Positions 693-10,809 of a stretch of 53,617 nt of DNA are shown here, piece by piece. Below the pieces are notes generated by a model, which saw only the letters and a list, made by a program, of their open reading frames with translations, searched no databases and was not told the origin of the DNA. The first letter of the stretch is position 1. Every line of letters starts with the position of its first letter. A program made the translations under genes and the position numbers. Source of the stretch: a virus; the IMG/VR virus record IMGVR_UViG_3300046007_010355, positions 1-53,617 of that record. One strand, 5' to 3'.

Positions 693-2246
693 TTATTTTC
701 CTTGTACAGTTTCTTCCAATGATCTTAATTTTTCATCATCTGGATTTGCTAAATCTATCTCTTCTTGTTTTGTAACTTCTTCAACTTCGAAATGAGTATT
801 AAATAGTGTCTGTTCTGGGCCTCCTCTTAGTCGTGCTCCTTCTAAGTTTCGTAGGAATGTACCGGCCTGTTCAATCATATCAAATGCTTCTGACTTTGTT
901 TTGGTATTAAACAAATCTTCTACGAAATTATTAAAGTACAGAATATTTCGAGGAACCCAATCTGAATATTCGTCGCTCATATCTGCTGATTTGACTTTTT
1001 TCCAATGTCGCCAATTAATCTTTCCTTGGGTCTTGGCAATTTCGATATCCATCAATTGTTGTGCACGTTGTACAGCTACAATATGACAATAAACGTTATG
1101 CCCCATCATCAGTGCGTATGAAAAACTATCCCAGGAAGTTCGACCTTCTTTTCCAATTTTATTAAGCATACCGGGTGCATAATGACAAATATCTCCTAAG
1201 GTTAATCTACGGCCTATTTCGGATTCGAAGGGGAACGGAATGTCTGATTTTGCAAGTGCTTTGTTATCTGGTGCTTTGTCCATAATAACACTCCACCTTT
1301 TGGCAGTGTGTTGTGCGTTGGTATAGACGAGACCGTGTGCTGTTGCAATAAATGGTGAGGCGCAATCAAAAGATATGGTAACTTCTTCATTAATGTGTTT
1401 CCTTATTTGTCTTTGAATACTAGTTAAGTAACAACTCCAATCGAGTTGAGCGGTACCGAGAAAGTGAATCCAATTCTTTCCCGCCAACATATTATCATCT
1501 CTCATAGTCATTAAACGTTTGAGAGTGATATCCATTTTACACATATTAGCTCCTCCGAAAGCCCAACCTTCGGCAGCTTTATCTTTCCAAATATTAGTAT
1601 CACTAAATTCTTTTACTCCATTATACCATTCTTCGGCAGTATCCCAATCTGAACCTTGAAGAACATTTAGCCATTTAGTATAACCTAGTCGATTTTTTAA
1701 GAAATATTCATTATTAAATTTTGTCTTATCTAAACAGTCTTGAAAAGTTTTCAATCCTGTTTTATGGCTATGATTGTGATCACATGCCCAGGTAGGTACA
1801 TCTAACATCATTGACCAATCGGCGGTGGTCTCCAACCATTCGAGAATTTGTTGACGAACTTTGTTAGCCTCTGGTCCTTCAAAATTTAACCAATCAAATT
1901 TAAGAACACCTTTACCAATTTGGTATCCTCCTGAGTCACCTAGAATCATAGTATTATTACGATCTCGTTGTTGAATCATTGATTCTTGTACAAGACTTTT
2001 TTGTAAATCCAATTGTGCGTGACCTGCTGAATACAGTGCATATTTGTATGTAAAATATCCTTCTTCTGGATTTAAGAAATTCATTCCTTCGATACCTCGA
2101 TCGAATTCTTTAGGAATGCGGTCATTTGGAACAAATTCTTCTAACCTTTGCTTTGCCACATAGGTTGAATAAAATGAGGAAATAGCTGGCAAATAGCAAG
2201 CGTAATCTTTGTTTAAAGAGCTTAAATCTACTGGTGGTTTTTTCAT
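693..2246 (-). CDS. dpdA: DpdA-like DNA 7-deazaguanine transglycosylase (TGT superfamily)
   Basis: This 517-residue protein looks like the tRNA-guanine transglycosylase superfamily, and its phage branch DpdA swaps guanine in DNA for a 7-deazaguanine such as preQ0. Visible motifs are ILGDSGGYQ, with D104 at the place of the TGT general acid/base, and SFDCASP, with D294 at the place of the nucleophilic aspartate (TGT has FDCxxPTR). The usual TGT zinc motif CxCxxC is not evident, which argues against a normal tRNA enzyme. It sits immediately downstream of the sliding clamp and polymerase genes, which suits an enzyme acting on replicating DNA. QueD-like and YhhQ-like genes at 46-47 kb could supply the base. 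The superfamily is fairly certain. DNA rather than tRNA as substrate is inferred from the phage setting. Confidence 0.72.
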   Translation of the reverse strand: MKKPPVDLSSLNKDYACYLPAISSFYSTYVAKQRLEEFVPNDRIPKEFDRGIEGMNFLNPEEGYFTYKYALYSAGHAQLDLQKSLVQESMIQQRDRNNTMILGDSGGYQIGKGVLKFDWLNFEGPEANKVRQQILEWLETTADWSMMLDVPTWACDHNHSHKTGLKTFQDCLDKTKFNNEYFLKNRLGYTKWLNVLQGSDWDTAEEWYNGVKEFSDTNIWKDKAAEGWAFGGANMCKMDITLKRLMTMRDDNMLAGKNWIHFLGTAQLDWSCYLTSIQRQIRKHINEEVTISFDCASPFIATAHGLVYTNAQHTAKRWSVIMDKAPDNKALAKSDIPFPFESEIGRRLTLGDICHYAPGMLNKIGKEGRTSWDSFSYALMMGHNVYCHIVAVQRAQQLMDIEIAKTQGKINWRHWKKVKSADMSDEYSDWVPRNILYFNNFVEDLFNTKTKSEAFDMIEQAGTFLRNLEGARLRGGPEQTLFNTHFEVEEVTKQEEIDLANPDDEKLRSLEETVQGK

Positions 2247-2317
2247 ATTATACCCAATGATATTTTAAATTTTTGTTTTGAGTAATGCTGTTTTCCTGCA
2301 TATTGTAAATTATCATA

Positions 2318-3106: not shown

Positions 3107-5776
3107 TTATTCAAACGTAAATAGATTGTTAAAGGTGGTTTTTTCATCTGTTGAATCTAAATCCCATTCTAGTACACCTATTAAATTATCTACTTTATTA
3201 TTAATAATTGTAGTTTCCATTTCTTCATGATCAAAAGGCAGTTCTTGAAACCATTTAGGTAAACGAAGTTCGTCAGTGGGGTATGCTACTGAAGTAAATC
3301 CCAATGGATTGGATTTTAATTTACAGATAATAACTTTCATGCCATCTACAATTTGCATTGAATATTTGTCGTCATTCATTCGTCTTAAAGTGTTCCAATT
3401 AATACTAGCACGAACATGTCCTGGCATATTAGCCTTACCTTGTTTTTTTTCTTTAGCTTCGTATTCTGTAATATTGTTTGCACGTTTAGGACTGCCTTTC
3501 TCCCAACCTGGACGAGCTTTAAAATTAACTCTAAATGCTGAAATCATGTCTAAAATTTCTTTTTCTTCAGAACCGTTTAGAACTTTGGTCAATATATCTG
3601 ATAAAAAATTTTGCATAAATTCTGGAGTATCTGATCTTTTTAGATCTAATCCCATAGCTTTTATTTTACCTGATTTACCGTCAATGTCAGTTCTTTTGCC
3701 TTCTTTGTCATAATAAAGTACAGCGTATCGTTTTTTAGTAATGAATAATCCTTTGACAGCAACGATTTCTCTGCCCGCCTTTATTACTTCGCCTCTACTT
3801 TTTGGACAATGAAATTTATCTAGCATAAGATCTGAAAAAGTAGAATTAACTTCACTGGCGATTGTGTCATACAATTTGATCACAGTATCTTTATCCCAAT
3901 TAATTTCGCCTTTATCGATTTCTTTTTTTAAAGTTGAATAAGCACTGAAATATGCCGAATCAGTATCACCATAAATGATTGATTTACCTAAATGGTTGTA
4001 TTCTCCGGTAACGACCTCATTTATTTTAGCAGCCATGTGCCTGGCAATACACCTTCCTGTAAGAGTGGTACTTTGACCAATACGGTTATCAAAAAACCTA
4101 CACCCAGCATTAAGAATAGCACCGTACAAACTATTAAGATTAATTTTTTTGACCAGTTGTCGTTTATCCCAGTATTCTTCTTCAATTTTATTCTCCGCTT
4201 TAATTGCATCTTTTAATTTAGCTTGTAATTCTTTACGTTCTGCATACCAACGTTTTAATAAACCGGGTATAATACCTTCGAATTCGTAGGTAAAAATAGT
4301 ACCATTAGCCGATAGCATCCAGGGTTTATTATTGTTAAAAATTAGATCATAGATTTGAGCTCCTGTCATGATTTCACATGTACCATTTTCCCAATCTACG
4401 TATATTTCATTAGCTTTATCTTGTGACATTACTAGTTCGTATTCGTTAGTACCGAATTTTCCCTCCCAACTAGCTGCGAAACTATTACCAGATGATATTT
4501 TTTCCTGTAGTTCGGCTTGTGTATAGTCCATTCTCAATTGACCAATAATTGTTTCGGGTCCCATGTTTAAAGCACGAATTACTGATGGATATAGACTATT
4601 AATATCCATTGATCCTATCCAATCATGAAGGCCTTTCTTAGGATATGCTACGTATGCTCCTGCTGCTTGACTATTATCACGATCATCCATTTTGGTTCGG
4701 CTAGGAACTATCATACCTCGATGATGAGCTTCGTTGATGATTGCTTGCTCTGTTACTGCAACCGCACCCATTGTAGTCTGTAACAATACTGTATTTTCAT
4801 GAGCAATGCTATTAGCTAGATCTATAAATTTTAATTTTTTATCTAATTTATCTAGTAGAGCACAGTCTTGTCTATTATATTCAATAAACTTTTTAAAATC
4901 ATTATTATATAATTGGTCGAGTGTTCCTTCGTAAACGGTTTTCGTTTCTCCTATTTCCATTTCTCCGATAGCGTCGAGCCTGTAGCTGTGTCGTTCTTCG
5001 TAAGTATATTTTCTGTACAGCTCAAGACTGTCCAAATGAACGCGACCGACAAGATCATAAGTGACAGCTTCTTTTCCGTATTTTTCATATTCTCTCTTTT
5101 TTGGTAATTGATCCCATAGACAAAATCTTCTTGTGTCTTCTTTAGATAAGACTTTAGTAACTCTATTGACAATATATGGAATATCGAAACCTTCTGAATT
5201 CCAACCGCTTAATACATCTGCATCTTCTATCAAATTCAAAAAAGTTTCCAGCATATCGGATTCATGATCGAAAAGATATGTATTTGGAAATTCTTTAATT
5301 AGTTCCTGAGCTTTTTCTTTAGTTAGAGTTTTCGGTGGAACAGCTAGACAGATTAGAGTATCTAACCATTGTAAATGCAATGCAATAGCAGTAATAGGCA
5401 TGAATGCATCATCTGGACTTGCATATCCTCTCTCAGGATCAAATGCAACTTCAATATCAAAAAATGCAACATTAAGTTTAGGGGGTTCTTTCCCTAGATA
5501 ATTGTCTTCTAAAATTCTAAATACAGGATTGATATCACTTTCGTATAACTTGTGTCCACTGTGAATTTTTTGTTCCTTAACATATTCCTTCCAGTTTTTA
5601 CATAGTACACGATTTAAATTTTCACCAAATATAGATTTGTATTTTCCTTTTTGATCTGGATAATAAAATATATATCTGGCAGGATATTCTTGATATAATC
5701 TACCTTTTTTAGGATCACGTTCTATAACCTGTACAATATCTTTTTCTCGATCCCATCTGGCATCAACATAACTCAT
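3107..5776 (-). CDS. 43: Family B DNA polymerase, gp43-like
   Basis: This 889-residue replicative polymerase has proofreading motifs: Exo I FFDIEVA, Exo II SGWNSEGFDIPY, and Exo III YNRQD. The polymerase motifs follow in order: motif A SMDINSLYPSVIR, motif B KKINLNSLYG, and motif C IIYGDTDSAYF. All catalytic acidic residues of these motifs are present, so it should have both synthesis and 3'-5' exonuclease activity. Its length is close to that of T4 gp43 (about 900). The clamp gene follows directly downstream. The leader contains two similar hairpins with 8-nt loops (5790..5835), which recalls the self-repressing operator of T4 gene 43. The ATG is preceded by an SD of AAGGGG. Confidence 0.97.
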   Translation of the reverse strand: MSYVDARWDREKDIVQVIERDPKKGRLYQEYPARYIFYYPDQKGKYKSIFGENLNRVLCKNWKEYVKEQKIHSGHKLYESDINPVFRILEDNYLGKEPPKLNVAFFDIEVAFDPERGYASPDDAFMPITAIALHLQWLDTLICLAVPPKTLTKEKAQELIKEFPNTYLFDHESDMLETFLNLIEDADVLSGWNSEGFDIPYIVNRVTKVLSKEDTRRFCLWDQLPKKREYEKYGKEAVTYDLVGRVHLDSLELYRKYTYEERHSYRLDAIGEMEIGETKTVYEGTLDQLYNNDFKKFIEYNRQDCALLDKLDKKLKFIDLANSIAHENTVLLQTTMGAVAVTEQAIINEAHHRGMIVPSRTKMDDRDNSQAAGAYVAYPKKGLHDWIGSMDINSLYPSVIRALNMGPETIIGQLRMDYTQAELQEKISSGNSFAASWEGKFGTNEYELVMSQDKANEIYVDWENGTCEIMTGAQIYDLIFNNNKPWMLSANGTIFTYEFEGIIPGLLKRWYAERKELQAKLKDAIKAENKIEEEYWDKRQLVKKINLNSLYGAILNAGCRFFDNRIGQSTTLTGRCIARHMAAKINEVVTGEYNHLGKSIIYGDTDSAYFSAYSTLKKEIDKGEINWDKDTVIKLYDTIASEVNSTFSDLMLDKFHCPKSRGEVIKAGREIVAVKGLFITKKRYAVLYYDKEGKRTDIDGKSGKIKAMGLDLKRSDTPEFMQNFLSDILTKVLNGSEEKEILDMISAFRVNFKARPGWEKGSPKRANNITEYEAKEKKQGKANMPGHVRASINWNTLRRMNDDKYSMQIVDGMKVIICKLKSNPLGFTSVAYPTDELRLPKWFQELPFDHEEMETTIINNKVDNLIGVLEWDLDSTDEKTTFNNLFTFE

Positions 5777-5789
5777 TACATTTCCCCTT

Positions 5790-5835
5790 GTGATTTATGG
5801 CTCACTAACCTTCATAAATGCGATTTTTGGCTCGC
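5790..5835 (-). promoter_or_regulatory. Tandem leader hairpins, candidate DNA polymerase operator
   Basis: The minus-strand leader of the polymerase gene contains two copies of a unit of about 30 nt. Copy 1 (5835 to 5820) folds as GCGA / loop GCCAAAAA / TCGC. Copy 2 (5805 to 5790) folds as GTGA / loop GCCATAAA / TCAC. The two stems differ by a paired change (C-G to T-A), and both loops are 8 nt. The second hairpin ends next to the SD (AAGGGG), 13-14 nt before the ATG. T4 gp43 is known to bind a hairpin with an 8-nt loop at its own ribosome-binding site. A late-type octamer AATAAATA lies upstream at 5853-5860. Confidence 0.5.
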
Positions 5836-5867
5836 TTGACCTTCATCTAAATTATTTATTAACTTGC

Positions 5868-6137
5868 TTATTCGTCTTTACGATTTGCATGGCCACTGAT
5901 GTCCACAATGGTTTCGAGATCATCAAATTCTCTAAACACTTGATCCCATTGGTCTTTAAGTGCAATTCTAATGGCTTTGCGAATAACACTGGGTTTAACT
6001 TCTAGTTCTTCTGCCACTGCTTTAATAGTTTCGTTAAGTCCTTCTGTAAGATCTTGAATTTCTTGCATTACCGTTACGCCCTCTGCCACTATTTGTTTAA
6101 TTTTAGATTTTTCTGGGTCACCAAATACTTTACTCAT
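5868..6137 (-). CDS. dsbA: DsbA-like late transcription regulator
   Basis: The ATG at 6137 is chosen because AGGAG lies just upstream. This gives 89 residues, the same as T4 DsbA, a double-stranded DNA-binding protein that helps late transcription. The middle (LNETIKAVAEELEV and the following helix with KDQWDQVFREFDDL) resembles the T4 pattern of a helical pair around an ELGV-type turn, ending in an acidic helix. The gene lies just upstream of the polymerase gene and has its own sigma70-like promoter. The similarity is modest, so a generic small helical DNA-binding protein remains possible. Confidence 0.55.
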   Translation of the reverse strand: MSKVFGDPEKSKIKQIVAEGVTVMQEIQDLTEGLNETIKAVAEELEVKPSVIRKAIRIALKDQWDQVFREFDDLETIVDISGHANRKDE

Positions 6138-6158
6138 ATAAACTCCTGTAAACAATTA

Positions 6159-6803: not shown

Positions 6804-7196
6804 TTACATATCTGAATCGAAATTACCTTGCATACGGATTTGTTCTATATCATTCTTTTCTGCGTAGTCGTCGATATACATGGCTAATTTAAAATCTAGT
6901 ATTGTCAGCCCTTCGACATCGGAAGTCGAAGTCTTAATTGTGACCTCGGCAACATCTTGTGTAACCTCGGCGAAGTGATCTAGTTTTTCACTTATACTAT
7001 TAACATATTCTACAAATTCTACAGCATGGCGATGATCTTTAGCCATGTATGTGGCTGTTAGGATTCTATGGTCAAGCATTTCCCAATCTGGTAAGAATCG
7101 ACTTTTTGCATCATCAAGATCGGCATCGGCTGGCACAAATTCTTCGATATCTTTTGATCTATATTTTCCTTCTGCAATATCGATCCAATTTCTCAT
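6804..7196 (-). CDS. Pterin-4a-carbinolamine dehydratase-like protein
   Basis: Residues about 40-115 match the layout of PCD/DCoH (PhhB): W..L..R.L, then F..YVNSISEKLDHF, a beta strand VTIKTSTSDVEGLTILDFKLA, and a final helix. In the enzyme family this dehydratase recycles hydroxylated tetrahydrobiopterin. The usual active-site H-H-P is replaced by LDHF, so activity may be changed or lost. The first residues, MRNWIDIAE followed by GKYRS, look like a T4 capsid-targeting leader with an (I)xE cleavage site, which suggests packaging in the head. The ATG overlaps the stop of the GIY-YIG gene (ATGA). Confidence 0.62.
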   Translation of the reverse strand: MRNWIDIAEGKYRSKDIEEFVPADADLDDAKSRFLPDWEMLDHRILTATYMAKDHRHAVEFVEYVNSISEKLDHFAEVTQDVAEVTIKTSTSDVEGLTILDFKLAMYIDDYAEKNDIEQIRMQGNFDSDM

Positions 7197-7864
7197 TGTG
7201 TGCGATCCTTGTTATCAATAGCACGTTCTATCTTTGCGATATTATATTTACGAGATCCGCATTTATCTCTTAACATATAACTTATAGCCATCTTTGTTAA
7301 ACCCAAATCTAATCTAGTTCCTACTTTTTCTGTTCCGTCTTTGTATGTTACTTGATATTTTGCTCTGGCATATTGATTTGCCATTCCAGTATTCCAGGTT
7401 TTGATACCCCTTAGTGTTTCACTTCTGCGACGGTCTGCATCTGCTTTACGAGCAGCCTTTTCCTCTTCAGTTAAAACTTTTTTAGGTTTTGCTGTTCCTT
7501 TGTTCCAGGGATCTTTACCTTTTCTCTGTTCGCTCCATTTAGCACGAGTTTCCTCCGAAGGAACCCAGCCCGTTTGCCCTTCTCCACCTTCGCTCATATT
7601 GTAACCTTTAGGACCAAATGATTCGTATAGTGCGATATAAAATCTTTCTTTATCATTTAATAGGGTTTTATCTTCTATACTATCCTCGATGATTTCCCAA
7701 ACGAAGTTTTCTTCGCCGTACTTTCGTAATGCTCTATGGAAGGCGAATTTGCATCCTCTTCTGGTATCACTTAAATGATTATTTTTTCTAATGTTGAAAG
7801 GAAGTTCAGTCTTGCCTACATAAGACTTTTGATTAATTTGATTAGTAACTTTATATATTAACAT
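7193..7864 (-). CDS. GIY-YIG homing endonuclease
   Basis: Starting at MLIYKVTNQ, the protein shows the GIY-YIG nuclease core: IYKVTN, then KSYVGKT, an arginine helix (FNIRKNNHL), and the acidic end of the domain near KERFYIALYESFG. A basic linker with an ATEWS-type segment (SEETRAKWSEQRKGKDPWNKG) and a C-terminal DNA-binding part follow. This is typical of free-standing phage homing endonucleases. I place the start at ATG 7864 next to the domain. In-frame alternatives are ATG 7921 and GTG 7930. A late-type octamer GATAAATA lies 6 nt upstream (7870-7877). The last nine codons (AIDNKDRTQ) nearly copy the end of the preceding gene (AIDDKDRTQ). Confidence 0.85.
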   Translation of the reverse strand: MLIYKVTNQINQKSYVGKTELPFNIRKNNHLSDTRRGCKFAFHRALRKYGEENFVWEIIEDSIEDKTLLNDKERFYIALYESFGPKGYNMSEGGEGQTGWVPSEETRAKWSEQRKGKDPWNKGTAKPKKVLTEEEKAARKADADRRRSETLRGIKTWNTGMANQYARAKYQVTYKDGTEKVGTRLDLGLTKMAISYMLRDKCGSRKYNIAKIERAIDNKDRTQ

Positions 7865-7898
7865 AAAGTTATTTATCATTTCACTTGTAAAGCCAGGG

Positions 7899-8318
7899 TT
7901 ATTGAGTTCTGTCTTTGTCATCAATAGCACCGCCTGTTATGAAAGCAGTACAACTTCTGCTGCCCGCACATTTAAAATGAAGAAAGTTACAGTATCCTAG
8001 ATCTGCTTTGTGTATTGTGGCCATAGTATCTGCATTTGGTTCATCGCCTTTAGCACCTTCTTCGATACATTTCCACATTTTATCACTTACATCAAATGCA
8101 GCACAGTTACCGCACTTCATTGTTCGAGCAGTCTTTTCTGTAATATTCCAACGTTTAGCAGCCTGTTTCCAGTAGTCTTCGGGTTCTTCTGGATTAGCAG
8201 GACCATAATGATATTGATCTATTGCTTTTTGACGATTTTTGAGATTAACATCGATATCGTAAGTAGCAACAGGACATCCTTTATTGGCTGCTTCTATAAG
8301 TTTTATATAGTTTCTCAT
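7899..8318 (-). CDS. Cysteine-rich phage protein with capsid-targeting-like leader
   Basis: This 139-residue protein begins MRNYIKLIE followed by AANKG, a close match in shape to the T4 capsid-targeting leader MKTYQEFIAE, which the head protease removes after (L/I)xE. The second half has about seven cysteines, including CGNC and CIEE, CNF, KC and SC, and could bind a metal or Fe-S cluster. The ATG overlaps the end of the -1 frame of the upstream gene (ATGA). The gene is followed by the GIY-YIG insertion, which carries a near copy of its last nine codons. Function is unknown. Confidence 0.75.
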   Translation of the reverse strand: MRNYIKLIEAANKGCPVATYDIDVNLKNRQKAIDQYHYGPANPEEPEDYWKQAAKRWNITEKTARTMKCGNCAAFDVSDKMWKCIEEGAKGDEPNADTMATIHKADLGYCNFLHFKCAGSRSCTAFITGGAIDDKDRTQ

Positions 8319-8563
8319 TTCTTTTTACTAGGTTCAGCTGCTGCAAAACGAGCAGCTATGGCCATTCTATCTATGTGCGCAGGATCCTTTTTAGTTCCTG
8401 GCCTATTATTTAATCTAAATTGATGATATCGTTCAGGGTCGGCATTTCGAAATCTTGTTTGCCACACTTCTAAATCGTCAGAAGGTTTCAGTTTAGGTTG
8501 AATACCGACCGGTTTTATTTGAGCAGGTTCTTGGGTCGATTGTTGTGGATCCTGCTCACTTAC
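8315..8563 (-). CDS. Frame -1 extension of the 749-aa protein (82 aa)
   Basis: After the stop of the 749-residue gene, the -1 frame stays open for 82 codons (VSEQDPQQST to AEPSKKK) and ends in TGA overlapping the ATG of the next gene. It lacks an ATG or GTG start near its beginning. The first possible one is an internal GTG about 32 codons in. Composition is coding-like (VWQTRFRNADPERYHQF). With a -1 slip on A AAA AAG at 8563-8569 it would be joined to the upstream protein, giving 831 residues. Alternatives are a one-base sequence error in the A6 run or loss of a start codon. Confidence 0.6.
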   Translation of the reverse strand, partial: VSEQDPQQSTQEPAQIKPVGIQPKLKPSDDLEVWQTRFRNADPERYHQFRLNNRPGTKKDPAHIDRMAIAARFAAAEPSKKK

Positions 8564-8569
8564 TTTTTT
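8504..8569 (-). promoter_or_regulatory. Candidate -1 ribosomal frameshift signal with pseudoknot
   Basis: The zero frame reads GCA AAA AAG TAA, which contains the efficient bacterial slippery heptamer A AAA AAG (8569-8563) just before the stop. After a 4-nt spacer comes an 8-bp stem TGAGCAGG (8558-8551) with CCTGCTCA (8527-8520). Part of its loop, ATCGACC (8540-8534), can pair with GGTCGGT (8510-8504) downstream, with one G-U pair. Together they form an H-type pseudoknot. Confidence 0.62.
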
Positions 8570-10809
8570 GCTTTGTTATCGGCCCTCTTTTTAGCTTTCC
8601 ATGTTGCACCAAATGCACGTTGAGCTATTTCTTTTTTATCTAAACCACTACCTTTATAACCAGCTTTGATATGTTTAGCCATACGTTTAAATTTAGCCTC
8701 TGGTGGTGCCTCTTCGTTAATCTCACTCTCTAACATTTGTTTAAGTTGTTCAAAGTATGGATCTATATTTTCTAATTCTTCTGCCACACCTCTTCCGTGA
8801 TTACCATTAGCATACGTATTATAAGATTCTTGACCATAACCATTGTTGAAATTAGAATGATCTTCTTTAGAGAAAACTTCATCACCTTGTAGATTATTTA
8901 GAACAGCATTTAGATAATCTGCTGCTTTAGTAATTTTACTTTGTTGCCAAGCTTCTAAGCCCTCCATTTCACTGTATTGTCTAATGATCTTTAGCAATCT
9001 CATAGCATCTTCGATGATACTTGTAAGTTCATTGCTGGCCATAGATATTTCGTGATCGACTGTTTCTTTCATATTTGAATCGGGTTGATCATCTTCTGGT
9101 TTTCTGACTAAAAATATTTTATCTTCTAATTCAGGTTTATTTTTAATAATAGCGAGAGCATAATTATTAGCACCGCGTTTCCAATCAAATACTTTTAGTT
9201 CGCCTTTGCTTCTTAAAATTTTACCATTAATTTTTAAATACCAAGGACCACGATCTCTATCTATTAACTGTCTTTGAAAATTAGGATCGTCTTCATGACC
9301 TAATTCTTGACCAAGCTCGGCTTGTTTAAATCTACGTTTTTCAGCATCCATTTGACGTTGTTGATCTCGTTCATATCCTCTGTAATAACCTGCTTCGTCG
9401 ACAGAGTTATGAACCTTACTTACTTTTAATGCATCTACAGTTTCTATATCTCTCGCAATAGTTAATGTATCTTGTGCTGGATCCTTATCTAAAACTGTCC
9501 ATATACCTTGATGATATTCGACTTTGTCACCTTTTTCAAAACTATCGGCTACTATATCAGCAAAGCCTTCCGTTAAACTTTGTCTTGGCTCAACAAAATG
9601 TCGACCGTCGCCGTCTCGATGAATTATTTCATTGATGAAGTTCTGGGGAGTAGTCATTACTTCATCTATCATGTCTTGACCTATTGCGTCTACTATTCTG
9701 GGCCAGCCTCCTGGCTCTTTGGCAGGGATAAGTCGCCAATCTGTAACAAAACGATATTGTATATCTTGATTAGTAGTGTCATACCACTTGTGATCTAACC
9801 AATCCTCATAGCCTCGACCCTGGGGTCCGTAAACTCTTTCGTATTCCGCTTCTCGATCCTCTCGGTCTTTGGGATCTAAATAAAATATTGCTTCTATTTT
9901 TGGTCCTCCCCACTTGATCTTGACCTTGCCGGTAAACCGTTCTCCTCGAGGAAAGGGAGTTGCAGTATCCCCCATGGAATATTTTTTATTTTTTGGCCAA
10001 ACTAGTACATTCGTTCCCTTAAAATTTAAGGGAAGTTCAAGTGAGTCACCGCCATCGTCACCGCCGCGATTCGGGGCAAATTCATTTAATCGTTCTTCCG
10101 CCACACCTTGCTGCATATTGATGTAACTCGGGGGATTCTTTGGATCAAATTCTGTGCCCGCAGGTAAATTTTTACTATGTGCTACATGACCGTATATCCC
10201 TACATCGCCGTCAATAATGCTGTATTCTACACCTCTTTTGGGTTCTAAATTATACATAAAGGTTTCTGCGTCTTTATAGTTTGCAAATGGACCAAAAGCC
10301 ATTTGATCAGGATCTGCATTGATGTCATTTATATAATAGTCTGCCTGTCCTGGGTTGGTTTGATAGCCTTCCGCCACACTATCTTCTTTGTATGCCTTAC
10401 TATATTTGTCTCTCAATCTACCTAATTCTGCCTGACTGGCACCTCTACGACCTGCTGCCGCAGCCATCTTCATATACTTCTCGCCATGTTTTTTTACACC
10501 TGTGTGATACTGTAGACCGCTTTCTTCTACATCATTTTCGGCGAATGGTTTACGATGTTTTTCCTGACCGCTCTTTTGTTCTTTTTTCTTATCACGGTGT
10601 TTACCACCGCCAGTTTGTGGACGTAGATGACCCTGTCTTGGTTTTTGAGGAACTGTTGGAGTGGCTTCACTAGCTGATCTACGTTGTGTTTGACCTAAAT
10701 TATGTGAAACAGTGGAACCTCCTGCTGTGCTAGATGCACCGCCGGTAGCAGTTTCTAAAATATATCTAGTTTCTTTATCTTTTTGGATTTTTTTGAATTC
10801 GTTTGTCAT
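8560..10809 (-). CDS. Large probable head-internal protein (749 aa, 831 with frameshift)
   Basis: No enzymatic domain is recognised. The N-terminal 130 residues are low-complexity and rich in G, S, Q, K and R (SASEATPTVPQKPRQGH). Residues 17-19 (ILE before TATGG) could be a head-protease site. The motif VAEG/VAEE occurs three times (near residues 143, 236 and 672) and SLTEG once, spaced between compact charged segments, which suggests cutting into pieces during head maturation. The C-terminus (PEAKFKRMAKHIKAGYKG) is a basic helical tail. The gene ends on a slippery A AAA AAG TAA, and the -1 frame adds 82 residues. It lies inside the 6-17 kb operon and overlaps the genes on both sides. Confidence 0.75.
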   Translation of the reverse strand: MTNEFKKIQKDKETRYILETATGGASSTAGGSTVSHNLGQTQRRSASEATPTVPQKPRQGHLRPQTGGGKHRDKKKEQKSGQEKHRKPFAENDVEESGLQYHTGVKKHGEKYMKMAAAAGRRGASQAELGRLRDKYSKAYKEDSVAEGYQTNPGQADYYINDINADPDQMAFGPFANYKDAETFMYNLEPKRGVEYSIIDGDVGIYGHVAHSKNLPAGTEFDPKNPPSYINMQQGVAEERLNEFAPNRGGDDGGDSLELPLNFKGTNVLVWPKNKKYSMGDTATPFPRGERFTGKVKIKWGGPKIEAIFYLDPKDREDREAEYERVYGPQGRGYEDWLDHKWYDTTNQDIQYRFVTDWRLIPAKEPGGWPRIVDAIGQDMIDEVMTTPQNFINEIIHRDGDGRHFVEPRQSLTEGFADIVADSFEKGDKVEYHQGIWTVLDKDPAQDTLTIARDIETVDALKVSKVHNSVDEAGYYRGYERDQQRQMDAEKRRFKQAELGQELGHEDDPNFQRQLIDRDRGPWYLKINGKILRSKGELKVFDWKRGANNYALAIIKNKPELEDKIFLVRKPEDDQPDSNMKETVDHEISMASNELTSIIEDAMRLLKIIRQYSEMEGLEAWQQSKITKAADYLNAVLNNLQGDEVFSKEDHSNFNNGYGQESYNTYANGNHGRGVAEELENIDPYFEQLKQMLESEINEEAPPEAKFKRMAKHIKAGYKGSGLDKKEIAQRAFGATWKAKKRADNKAKK

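What the first reader, a model, noticed from the sequence alone, without database searches (positions are those of the whole stretch)
5790..5835. Two covarying hairpins with 8-nt loops before the DNA polymerase gene
Two repeats in the polymerase leader form GCGA-GCCAAAAA-TCGC and GTGA-GCCATAAA-TCAC. The stems differ by a compensating base pair and both loops are 8 nt. T4 gp43 is known to bind an operator hairpin with an 8-nt loop at its own start site to shut off its translation. A doubled operator, with the proximal one touching the SD, would be a variation on that theme.
Basis: partly seen in the sequence, partly recalled or inferred. Interest (0 to 1): 0.68.

Follow-up and report, generated by a model that had tools for sequence, protein, structure and literature searches.

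The report
Twin pseudoknot switch before phage polymerase
The two small RNA hairpins before this virus's DNA-copying enzyme gene are real and are conserved in hundreds of related uncultured phages, and each appears to be a compact knot at or just before the ribosome's landing site, probably letting the enzyme shut off its own production when there is too much of it.

Summary
On the minus strand before the gp43-like DNA polymerase gene (3107-5776) lie two hairpins, GCGA-GCCAAAAA-TCGC (5820-5835) and GTGA-GCCATAAA-TCAC (5790-5805). In IMG/VR, 103 of 105 distinct leaders of close relatives carry two such units; shuffled leaders never carry two. Inner stem pairs change about 20-29 times on the polymerase tree and stay paired. 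The loop is nearly always 8 nt (GCCRYAAR).

Every unit has a GGY triplet 5-9 nt before the loop that can pair with the loop's RCC. GGY:RCC becomes AGY:RCU in at least five independent lineages, with no discordant real unit. The units are therefore tandem H-type pseudoknots. The second abuts or overlaps the Shine-Dalgarno; a promoter-like TAAATA sits 11-12 nt before the first.

In contigs of close relatives the element occurs only at the polymerase gene. Where an ORF has slipped between leader and polymerase, the element precedes that ORF. RegA was not found.

Best explanation: an autogenous translational operator for gp43, like T4's single hairpin in idea but doubled and pseudoknotted. Structure is well supported; binding by gp43 is inferred. 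No Rfam match, no published description found.

The parts
3107..5776 (-). gp43-like family B DNA polymerase gene (889 aa), the gene downstream of the element
   Evidence: PHROG 262 E=3e-196; Pfam DNA_pol_B and exo1; best solved relative is RB69 gp43, 1clq, E=2e-60
5853..5858 (-). TAAATA, putative T4-type late-promoter box; predicted transcript start a few nt before pseudoknot 1
   Evidence: Present in 89 of 102 clade-A leaders, at 11-12 nt before GGT in 81 (9% of shuffles have it anywhere); ATAAATA depleted in the window, 6 against 38 expected, all on the minus strand
5839..5841 (-). GGU, 5' strand of S1 of pseudoknot 1; pairs with loop GCC at 5829-5831
   Evidence: Direct reading; S1 99.5% paired with G-C to A-U double changes in the clade-A alignment
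5820..5835 (-). Hairpin 1 (S2 of pseudoknot 1): GCGA-GCCAAAAA-TCGC
   Evidence: Direct reading; inner pairs covary; CM hit 28.7 bits
5808..5810 (-). GGU, 5' strand of S1 of pseudoknot 2; pairs with loop GCC at 5799-5801
   Evidence: Direct reading; GGY:RCC / AGY:RCU exchange across clades
5790..5805 (-). Hairpin 2 (S2 of pseudoknot 2): GTGA-GCCATAAA-TCAC, ends directly at the Shine-Dalgarno
   Evidence: Direct reading; CM hit 25.4 bits; pairs covary
5784..5789 (-). Shine-Dalgarno AAGGGG of the polymerase gene, adjacent to S2 of pseudoknot 2
   Evidence: Direct reading; SD starts -3 to +2 nt from the S2 end in 94 of 97 clade-A leaders

Best explanation
The leader mRNA of this gp43-like polymerase carries two tandem H-type pseudoknots. 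In each, a 3-bp S1 (GGY with loop RCC) stacks on a 4-7 bp S2, with a first loop of about 1-3 nt and a 5-nt A-rich third loop (NYAAR). Pseudoknot 2 abuts or overlaps the Shine-Dalgarno. The mechanism judged most likely is autogenous translational repression. Free gp43 binds the pseudoknots, probably reading the A-rich loop, and its presence on pseudoknot 2, helped by pseudoknot 1, keeps the 30S subunit off the Shine-Dalgarno. When gp43 is engaged on DNA, the leader is free and translation resumes. Shown here: the structure, its conservation, its position, its restriction to the polymerase unit. Inferred: binding by gp43, repression, cooperation of the two units.
For: At least two units in 103 of 105 distinct clade-A leaders. 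S2 inner pairs always paired through about 20-29 pair changes on the polymerase tree. S1 double changes GGY:RCC to AGY:RCU, three independent in unit 1 and two in unit 2, none against. Sliding or shuffling controls lose the signal. SD contact or overlap in all three clades. Only polymerase leaders carry it in 11 close-relative contigs, 1.79 Mb. In nine relatives a 20-341 aa ORF sits between element and polymerase; the element then precedes that ORF, which ends at or overlaps the polymerase start, so it stays at the head of the polymerase translation unit. T4 and RB69 gp43 repress their own translation through an 8-nt-loop hairpin with UAAC (RB49 UAAA) (PMC3014915); loop length and the YAA sequence recur here. 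RegA not found in 12 contigs while found in T4, an RB49-like phage and S-PM2.
Against: No binding or expression data. Folding energy of the leader is ordinary. The T4 loop sequence and the position of UAAC within it differ, and T4 has no such pseudoknot. 52 of 269 related polymerases (58% identity or more) lack the element within 1.5 kb upstream, so it is not universal. Contigs may be incomplete, so other target genes could have been missed.
Confidence: 0.62

Rival explanations
1. The tandem pseudoknots are bound by another phage protein, for example the gp32-like ssDNA-binding protein, which represses T4 gene 32 through a pseudoknot, and so couple polymerase synthesis to ssDNA level.
For: T4 gp32 is a known pseudoknot binder (PMC3014915). 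gp32-like genes exist in some of these phages.
Against: The gp32 leaders of two of these phages do not carry this element (no CM hit there), although gp32's best-known target is its own message.
Confidence: 0.12
2. Protein-independent cis structure: the two pseudoknots set translation rate, protect the 5' end of the mRNA from decay, or melt with temperature, with no trans-acting factor.
For: They sit at the predicted 5' end of the transcript and touch the SD.
Against: Loop letters RCC-NYAAR stay nearly fixed while stems vary freely, which suggests a recognised surface; an exact copy number of two is not needed for simple masking.
Confidence: 0.15
3. Small-molecule riboswitch pair, for example preQ1-I-like compact pseudoknots sensing a nucleotide or deazapurine.
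For: Compact H-type pseudoknots with A-rich third loops next to an SD are the layout of preQ1-I (own knowledge).
Against: No Rfam match at gathering score in the window or 12 relatives. Almost no unpaired sequence is left for a pocket: L1 is about 1-3 nt and no nucleotides lie between the helices. It occurs at one gene only.
Confidence: 0.06
4. Only hairpins form; the GGY triplets are conserved for another reason, such as direct protein contact.
For: S1 is only 3 bp and mostly invariant; one clade-A unit (L016, loop UCC) lacks the third pair.
Against: Co-change of GGY and RCC in at least five lineages with no exception among real units; S1 can extend to 4 bp in clade B, including GAGC:GCTC and TAGC:GCTA.
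Confidence: 0.05

Closest known systems
T4 / RB69 gene 43 translational operator (gp43 autoregulation)
   Same: Same target gene; structured element at the SD; 4-5 bp stem with an 8-nt loop; A-rich loop letters (UAAC in T4, UAAA in RB49, YAAR here) (PMC3014915)
   Different: Here there are two units, each a pseudoknot with an upstream GGY strand; loop 5' half is RCC; A-rich letters are at loop positions 5-8, not 3-6; protein binding untested
T4/T2/RB69 gene 32 leader pseudoknot (gp32 autoregulation)
   Same: Phage replication protein leader with an H-type pseudoknot used in translational autocontrol
   Different: Single pseudoknot about 67 nt upstream followed by an A+U-rich stretch for cooperative gp32 binding (PMC3014915); different gene; here two units packed directly onto the SD
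preQ1-I riboswitch (compact H-type pseudoknot at an SD)
   Same: Short H-type pseudoknot with A-rich third loop next to the SD (own knowledge)
   Different: No Rfam match, no room for a ligand pocket, present at one gene only
E. coli rpsO (S15) pseudoknot operator
   Same: Autogenous translational control through a pseudoknot at the start site (PMC3014915)
   Different: Cellular ribosomal protein, single pseudoknot; no sequence relation tested

Membership tests
T4-type gene 43 translational operator | Lies in the leader of a gp43-type family B DNA polymerase and reaches the ribosome binding site | tested here: met
   PHROG 262 and RB69 gp43 matches; SD adjacent to or overlapping S2
T4-type gene 43 translational operator | Hairpin with an 8-nt loop | tested here: met
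   8-nt loops in nearly all units; T4 and RB69-like leaders compared
T4-type gene 43 translational operator | Loop with UAAC/UAAA/CAAC letters in the middle of the loop | tested here: inconclusive
   YAAR present, but at loop positions 5-8 rather than 3-6
T4-type gene 43 translational operator | Single hairpin, no evidence of a pseudoknot | tested here: not met
   Two units, each with S1 pairing supported by covariation
T4-type gene 43 translational operator | gp43 binds the RNA and represses translation | not testable with these tools
   Needs binding and reporter assays
T4-type gene 32 pseudoknot operator | H-type pseudoknot in the leader of a replication protein | tested here: met
T4-type gene 32 pseudoknot operator | Located before gene 32 | tested here: not met
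   Located before gp43; gp32-like leaders of two phages lack it
preQ1-I riboswitch or another Rfam family | Reaches the gathering score of an Rfam model | tested here: not met
   Zero matches in the window and 12 relatives
RegA operator | Phage encodes RegA (PF01818) | tested here: not met
   0 of 12 contigs, while found in T4, an RB49-like phage and S-PM2; contigs may be incomplete

The most novel reading that the evidence does not exclude
A previously undescribed RNA family: a tandem pseudoknot operator recognised by a replicative DNA polymerase, with both pseudoknots needed for a cooperative or graded shut-off, spread across a large group of uncultured phages and kept at the head of the polymerase translation unit even when another ORF is inserted.
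Probability: 0.5. Interest if true: 0.8.

Novelty: new variant of a known kind. Interest (0 to 1): 0.7.

Why it matters
[quoted passage not shown] Here a polymerase leader with two pseudoknots is conserved in about 100 distinct leaders of close relatives, and one such unit in about 200 in all, with natural variants in S1 sequence, S2 length and the nature of unit 1. That gives a ready panel of sequences to test how a DNA polymerase can read RNA, how operators evolve, and what a second copy adds. The 52 related polymerases without the element, many overlapping the upstream gene, offer a natural comparison of two ways to set polymerase dose.

Tried and rejected
Thermodynamic folding of the window leader alone gave no signal (z = 0.40). 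Rfam gave nothing. Cultured large phages with related polymerases (Phosso, Atu_ph07, SCTP-2, RaK2, Vibrio 2.275.O, PA5oct, XbC2, XacN1) were checked and their leaders lack the element. A regulon was considered: CM and pattern searches of 11 large contigs found no other convincing site; the weak CM hits elsewhere (E 0.06-0.84) mostly have wrong loop lengths or broken pairs. The element was first thought absent from some clade B and C polymerases; a search further upstream found it before an inserted ORF in nine of them. A scan of GTDB genomes found no relative, so the host is unknown. Two apparent S1 exceptions (L084, L283) are leaders without the element. Model R1 does not recognise the clade B and C variants, so its silence there is not evidence of absence.

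Full report
What is there. The window is a 53.6-kb virus record, possibly a fragment. On the minus strand, gene 3107-5776 encodes an 889-aa family B DNA polymerase whose best matches are the T4-type gp43 group (PHROG 262, E=3e-196; RB69 gp43 structure 1clq, E=2e-60). Its leader reads, 5' to 3': AATAAATA (5853-5860) ... GAAGGT CAA GCGA GCCAAAAA TCGC ATTTAT GAAGGT TA GTGA GCCATAAA TCAC AAGGGG AAATGTA ATG. The second ends directly at the AAGGGG Shine-Dalgarno.

Is it more than chance? The single sequence cannot decide: its folding energy is that of shuffled sequence (z = 0.40). Relatives do. A scan of IMG/VR with the polymerase gave 80 loci at 78-100% identity, with two hairpins before the start in essentially all. 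Further scans with distant queries brought the set to about 280 distinct leaders. Among 105 distinct leaders of close relatives (75% identity or more, called clade A here), 103 hold at least two complete units; of 5,250 shuffled versions none holds two and 52 hold one. Leader hairpins with 8-nt loops are in excess, 198 against 77 expected.

Stems. The three pairs next to the loop are always standard pairs, partly because hairpins were chosen with at least 3 bp; but 99 of 105 clade-A leaders pass that choice twice. In clade A, pairs 2 to 4 of unit 1 and pairs 1 to 3 of unit 2 change about 20 to 29 times on the polymerase tree, with about equal numbers of changes on the two sides, and stay paired. 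On a gap-free alignment of 64 distinct unit-1 sequences, 97.3% of cells pair, with 108 double changes; shuffles give 80% and 38, and sliding the partner by 1-3 columns gives at most 51%. Recombination of leaders could inflate the number of changes on the tree but not the pairing itself.

The missed part: pseudoknots. Units in clade A have a [A/G]G[C/T] triplet 5-9 nt before the loop that can pair with loop letters 1-3. Where spacing was fixed at 7 without looking at the triplet, clade-A unit 1 gave GGT:GCC 70, GGC:GCC 10, AGT:GCT 4, GGT:ACC 2 and one GGT:TCC, the rest being units with another spacing or a misplaced anchor. In distant clades the pairs are GGC/GGT:GCC in 59 and AGT/AGC:GCT in 43, with AGT:ACT in one. 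Over all units, upstream G goes with loop C and upstream A with loop U in every real case (unit 1: 90 and 4; unit 2: 156 and 44); the two exceptions are leaders with no element. On the tree these are three independent co-changes in unit 1 and two in unit 2 on well-supported branches, none the other way; the counts are too few for the sign test offered, but the concordance is complete. A mixed clade A and B alignment of unit 2 gives S1 100% paired with 14 double changes among 31 sequences. In clade B, S1 can grow to four pairs: GAGT:GCTC, GAGC:GCTC, GAGT:ACTC and TAGC:GCTA. The geometry fits an H-type pseudoknot: a first loop of about 1-3 nt over an S2 of 4-7 bp, no nucleotides between the helices, and a 5-nt A-rich third loop over a 3-bp S1.

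Position. The Shine-Dalgarno starts within -3 to +2 nt of the end of S2 in 94 of 97 clade-A leaders and overlaps S2 by about 3 nt in most of clade C. A TAAATA box lies 11 or 12 nt before the first GGT in 81 of 102 clade-A leaders; the window has exactly 11. ATAAATA is rare in the window (6 against 38 expected) and all six copies are on the main coding strand, as might be expected of a T4-type late promoter. If so, the transcript begins a few nt before pseudoknot 1 and the leader is little more than the two pseudoknots. That start site is inferred.

Distribution. Of 269 polymerases at 58% identity or more, about 208 have the element directly before the start, nine have it before an ORF of 20-341 aa that ends at or overlaps the polymerase start, and 52 lack it within 1.5 kb (the script's tenth coupled case, L032, is a direct one with a mismatched pair). 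Many of the 52 start within or next to the stop codon of the upstream gene. In clades B and C (about 61-66% identity) unit 2 is conserved while unit 1 is replaced by another hairpin (GAGTC...), which in part of clade B also looks like a pseudoknot (AGTC:GACT, GGTC:GACC) (by eye). Cultured relatives lack the element. In 11 large contigs of close relatives, 1.79 Mb, the covariance model finds convincing sites only at the polymerase gene, and a sequence pattern is little commoner than its reversed control elsewhere.

How it probably works. The element sits at the head of the polymerase translation unit, touches the SD, keeps its loop letters while stems drift, and is not shared by other genes. 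The simplest reading is autogenous control: gp43 itself is the ligand. T4 and RB69 gp43 do this with a single 8-nt-loop hairpin carrying UAAC, and RB49 has UAAA (PMC3014915; T4 and RB69-like leaders read). The present loops also have 8 nt and end in YAAR. RegA, the other T4 repressor of this region, was not found in 12 contigs including several above 320 kb, while the same search found it in T4, an RB49-like phage and S-PM2. gp32-like genes exist but two of their leaders lack the element. Binding, repression and cooperation of the two units are inferred, not shown.

What it is not. It is not in Rfam 15. It fails one defining feature of the T4 gene 43 operator (single hairpin, no pseudoknot) and one of the gene 32 operator (before gene 32), so it is filed as working like a gp43 operator, not as a member of either. 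Literature searches of the open-access library found no description; subscription journals are mostly not held.

Noticed in passing
window 7193-7930 (-): GIY-YIG homing endonuclease with a weak NUMOD3 match, a few genes upstream of the polymerase.
   Followed up: no
window, six ATAAATA sites starting at 5853, 7870, 16687, 17141, 26146, 37966 (-): ATAAATA is about six-fold rarer than expected and all copies lie on the main coding strand, suggesting T4-type late promoters in this phage.
   Followed up: partly
L253 1352, L254 1331, L257 1268, L258 1352, L270 1352, and L391 just before 1501: Small ORFs of 20-57 aa, cysteine-rich in the longer forms, between the pseudoknot leader and the polymerase, overlapping the polymerase start by ATGA.
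   Followed up: partly
L167 and L169 (341 aa ORF), L335 (265 aa ORF from 707): Larger ORFs between the pseudoknot leader and the polymerase; the ORF now uses the leader's ribosome binding site. Identity of the ORFs not determined.
   Followed up: no
L461 about 2134-2277 (-) and L462 about 1252-1383: gp32-like gene leaders of two of these phages share a conserved block TTTTTTAGTCAGT.GGCTTTAAAAGAATGGCACATAAAA that may be their own regulatory site.
   Followed up: no
Leaders of L250, L255, L256, L266, L298: In clade B unit 1 is a different hairpin that may also be a pseudoknot, with AGTC:GACT and GGTC:GACC variants.
   Followed up: no
window 5868-6155 (-): 95-aa gene just upstream matches PHROG 12534 and weakly PHROG 639 (transcriptional regulator); a gene of similar size precedes the polymerase in several cultured large phages.
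   Followed up: no
window 8560-10809 (-): 749-aa ORF without a Pfam or PHROG match.
   Followed up: no
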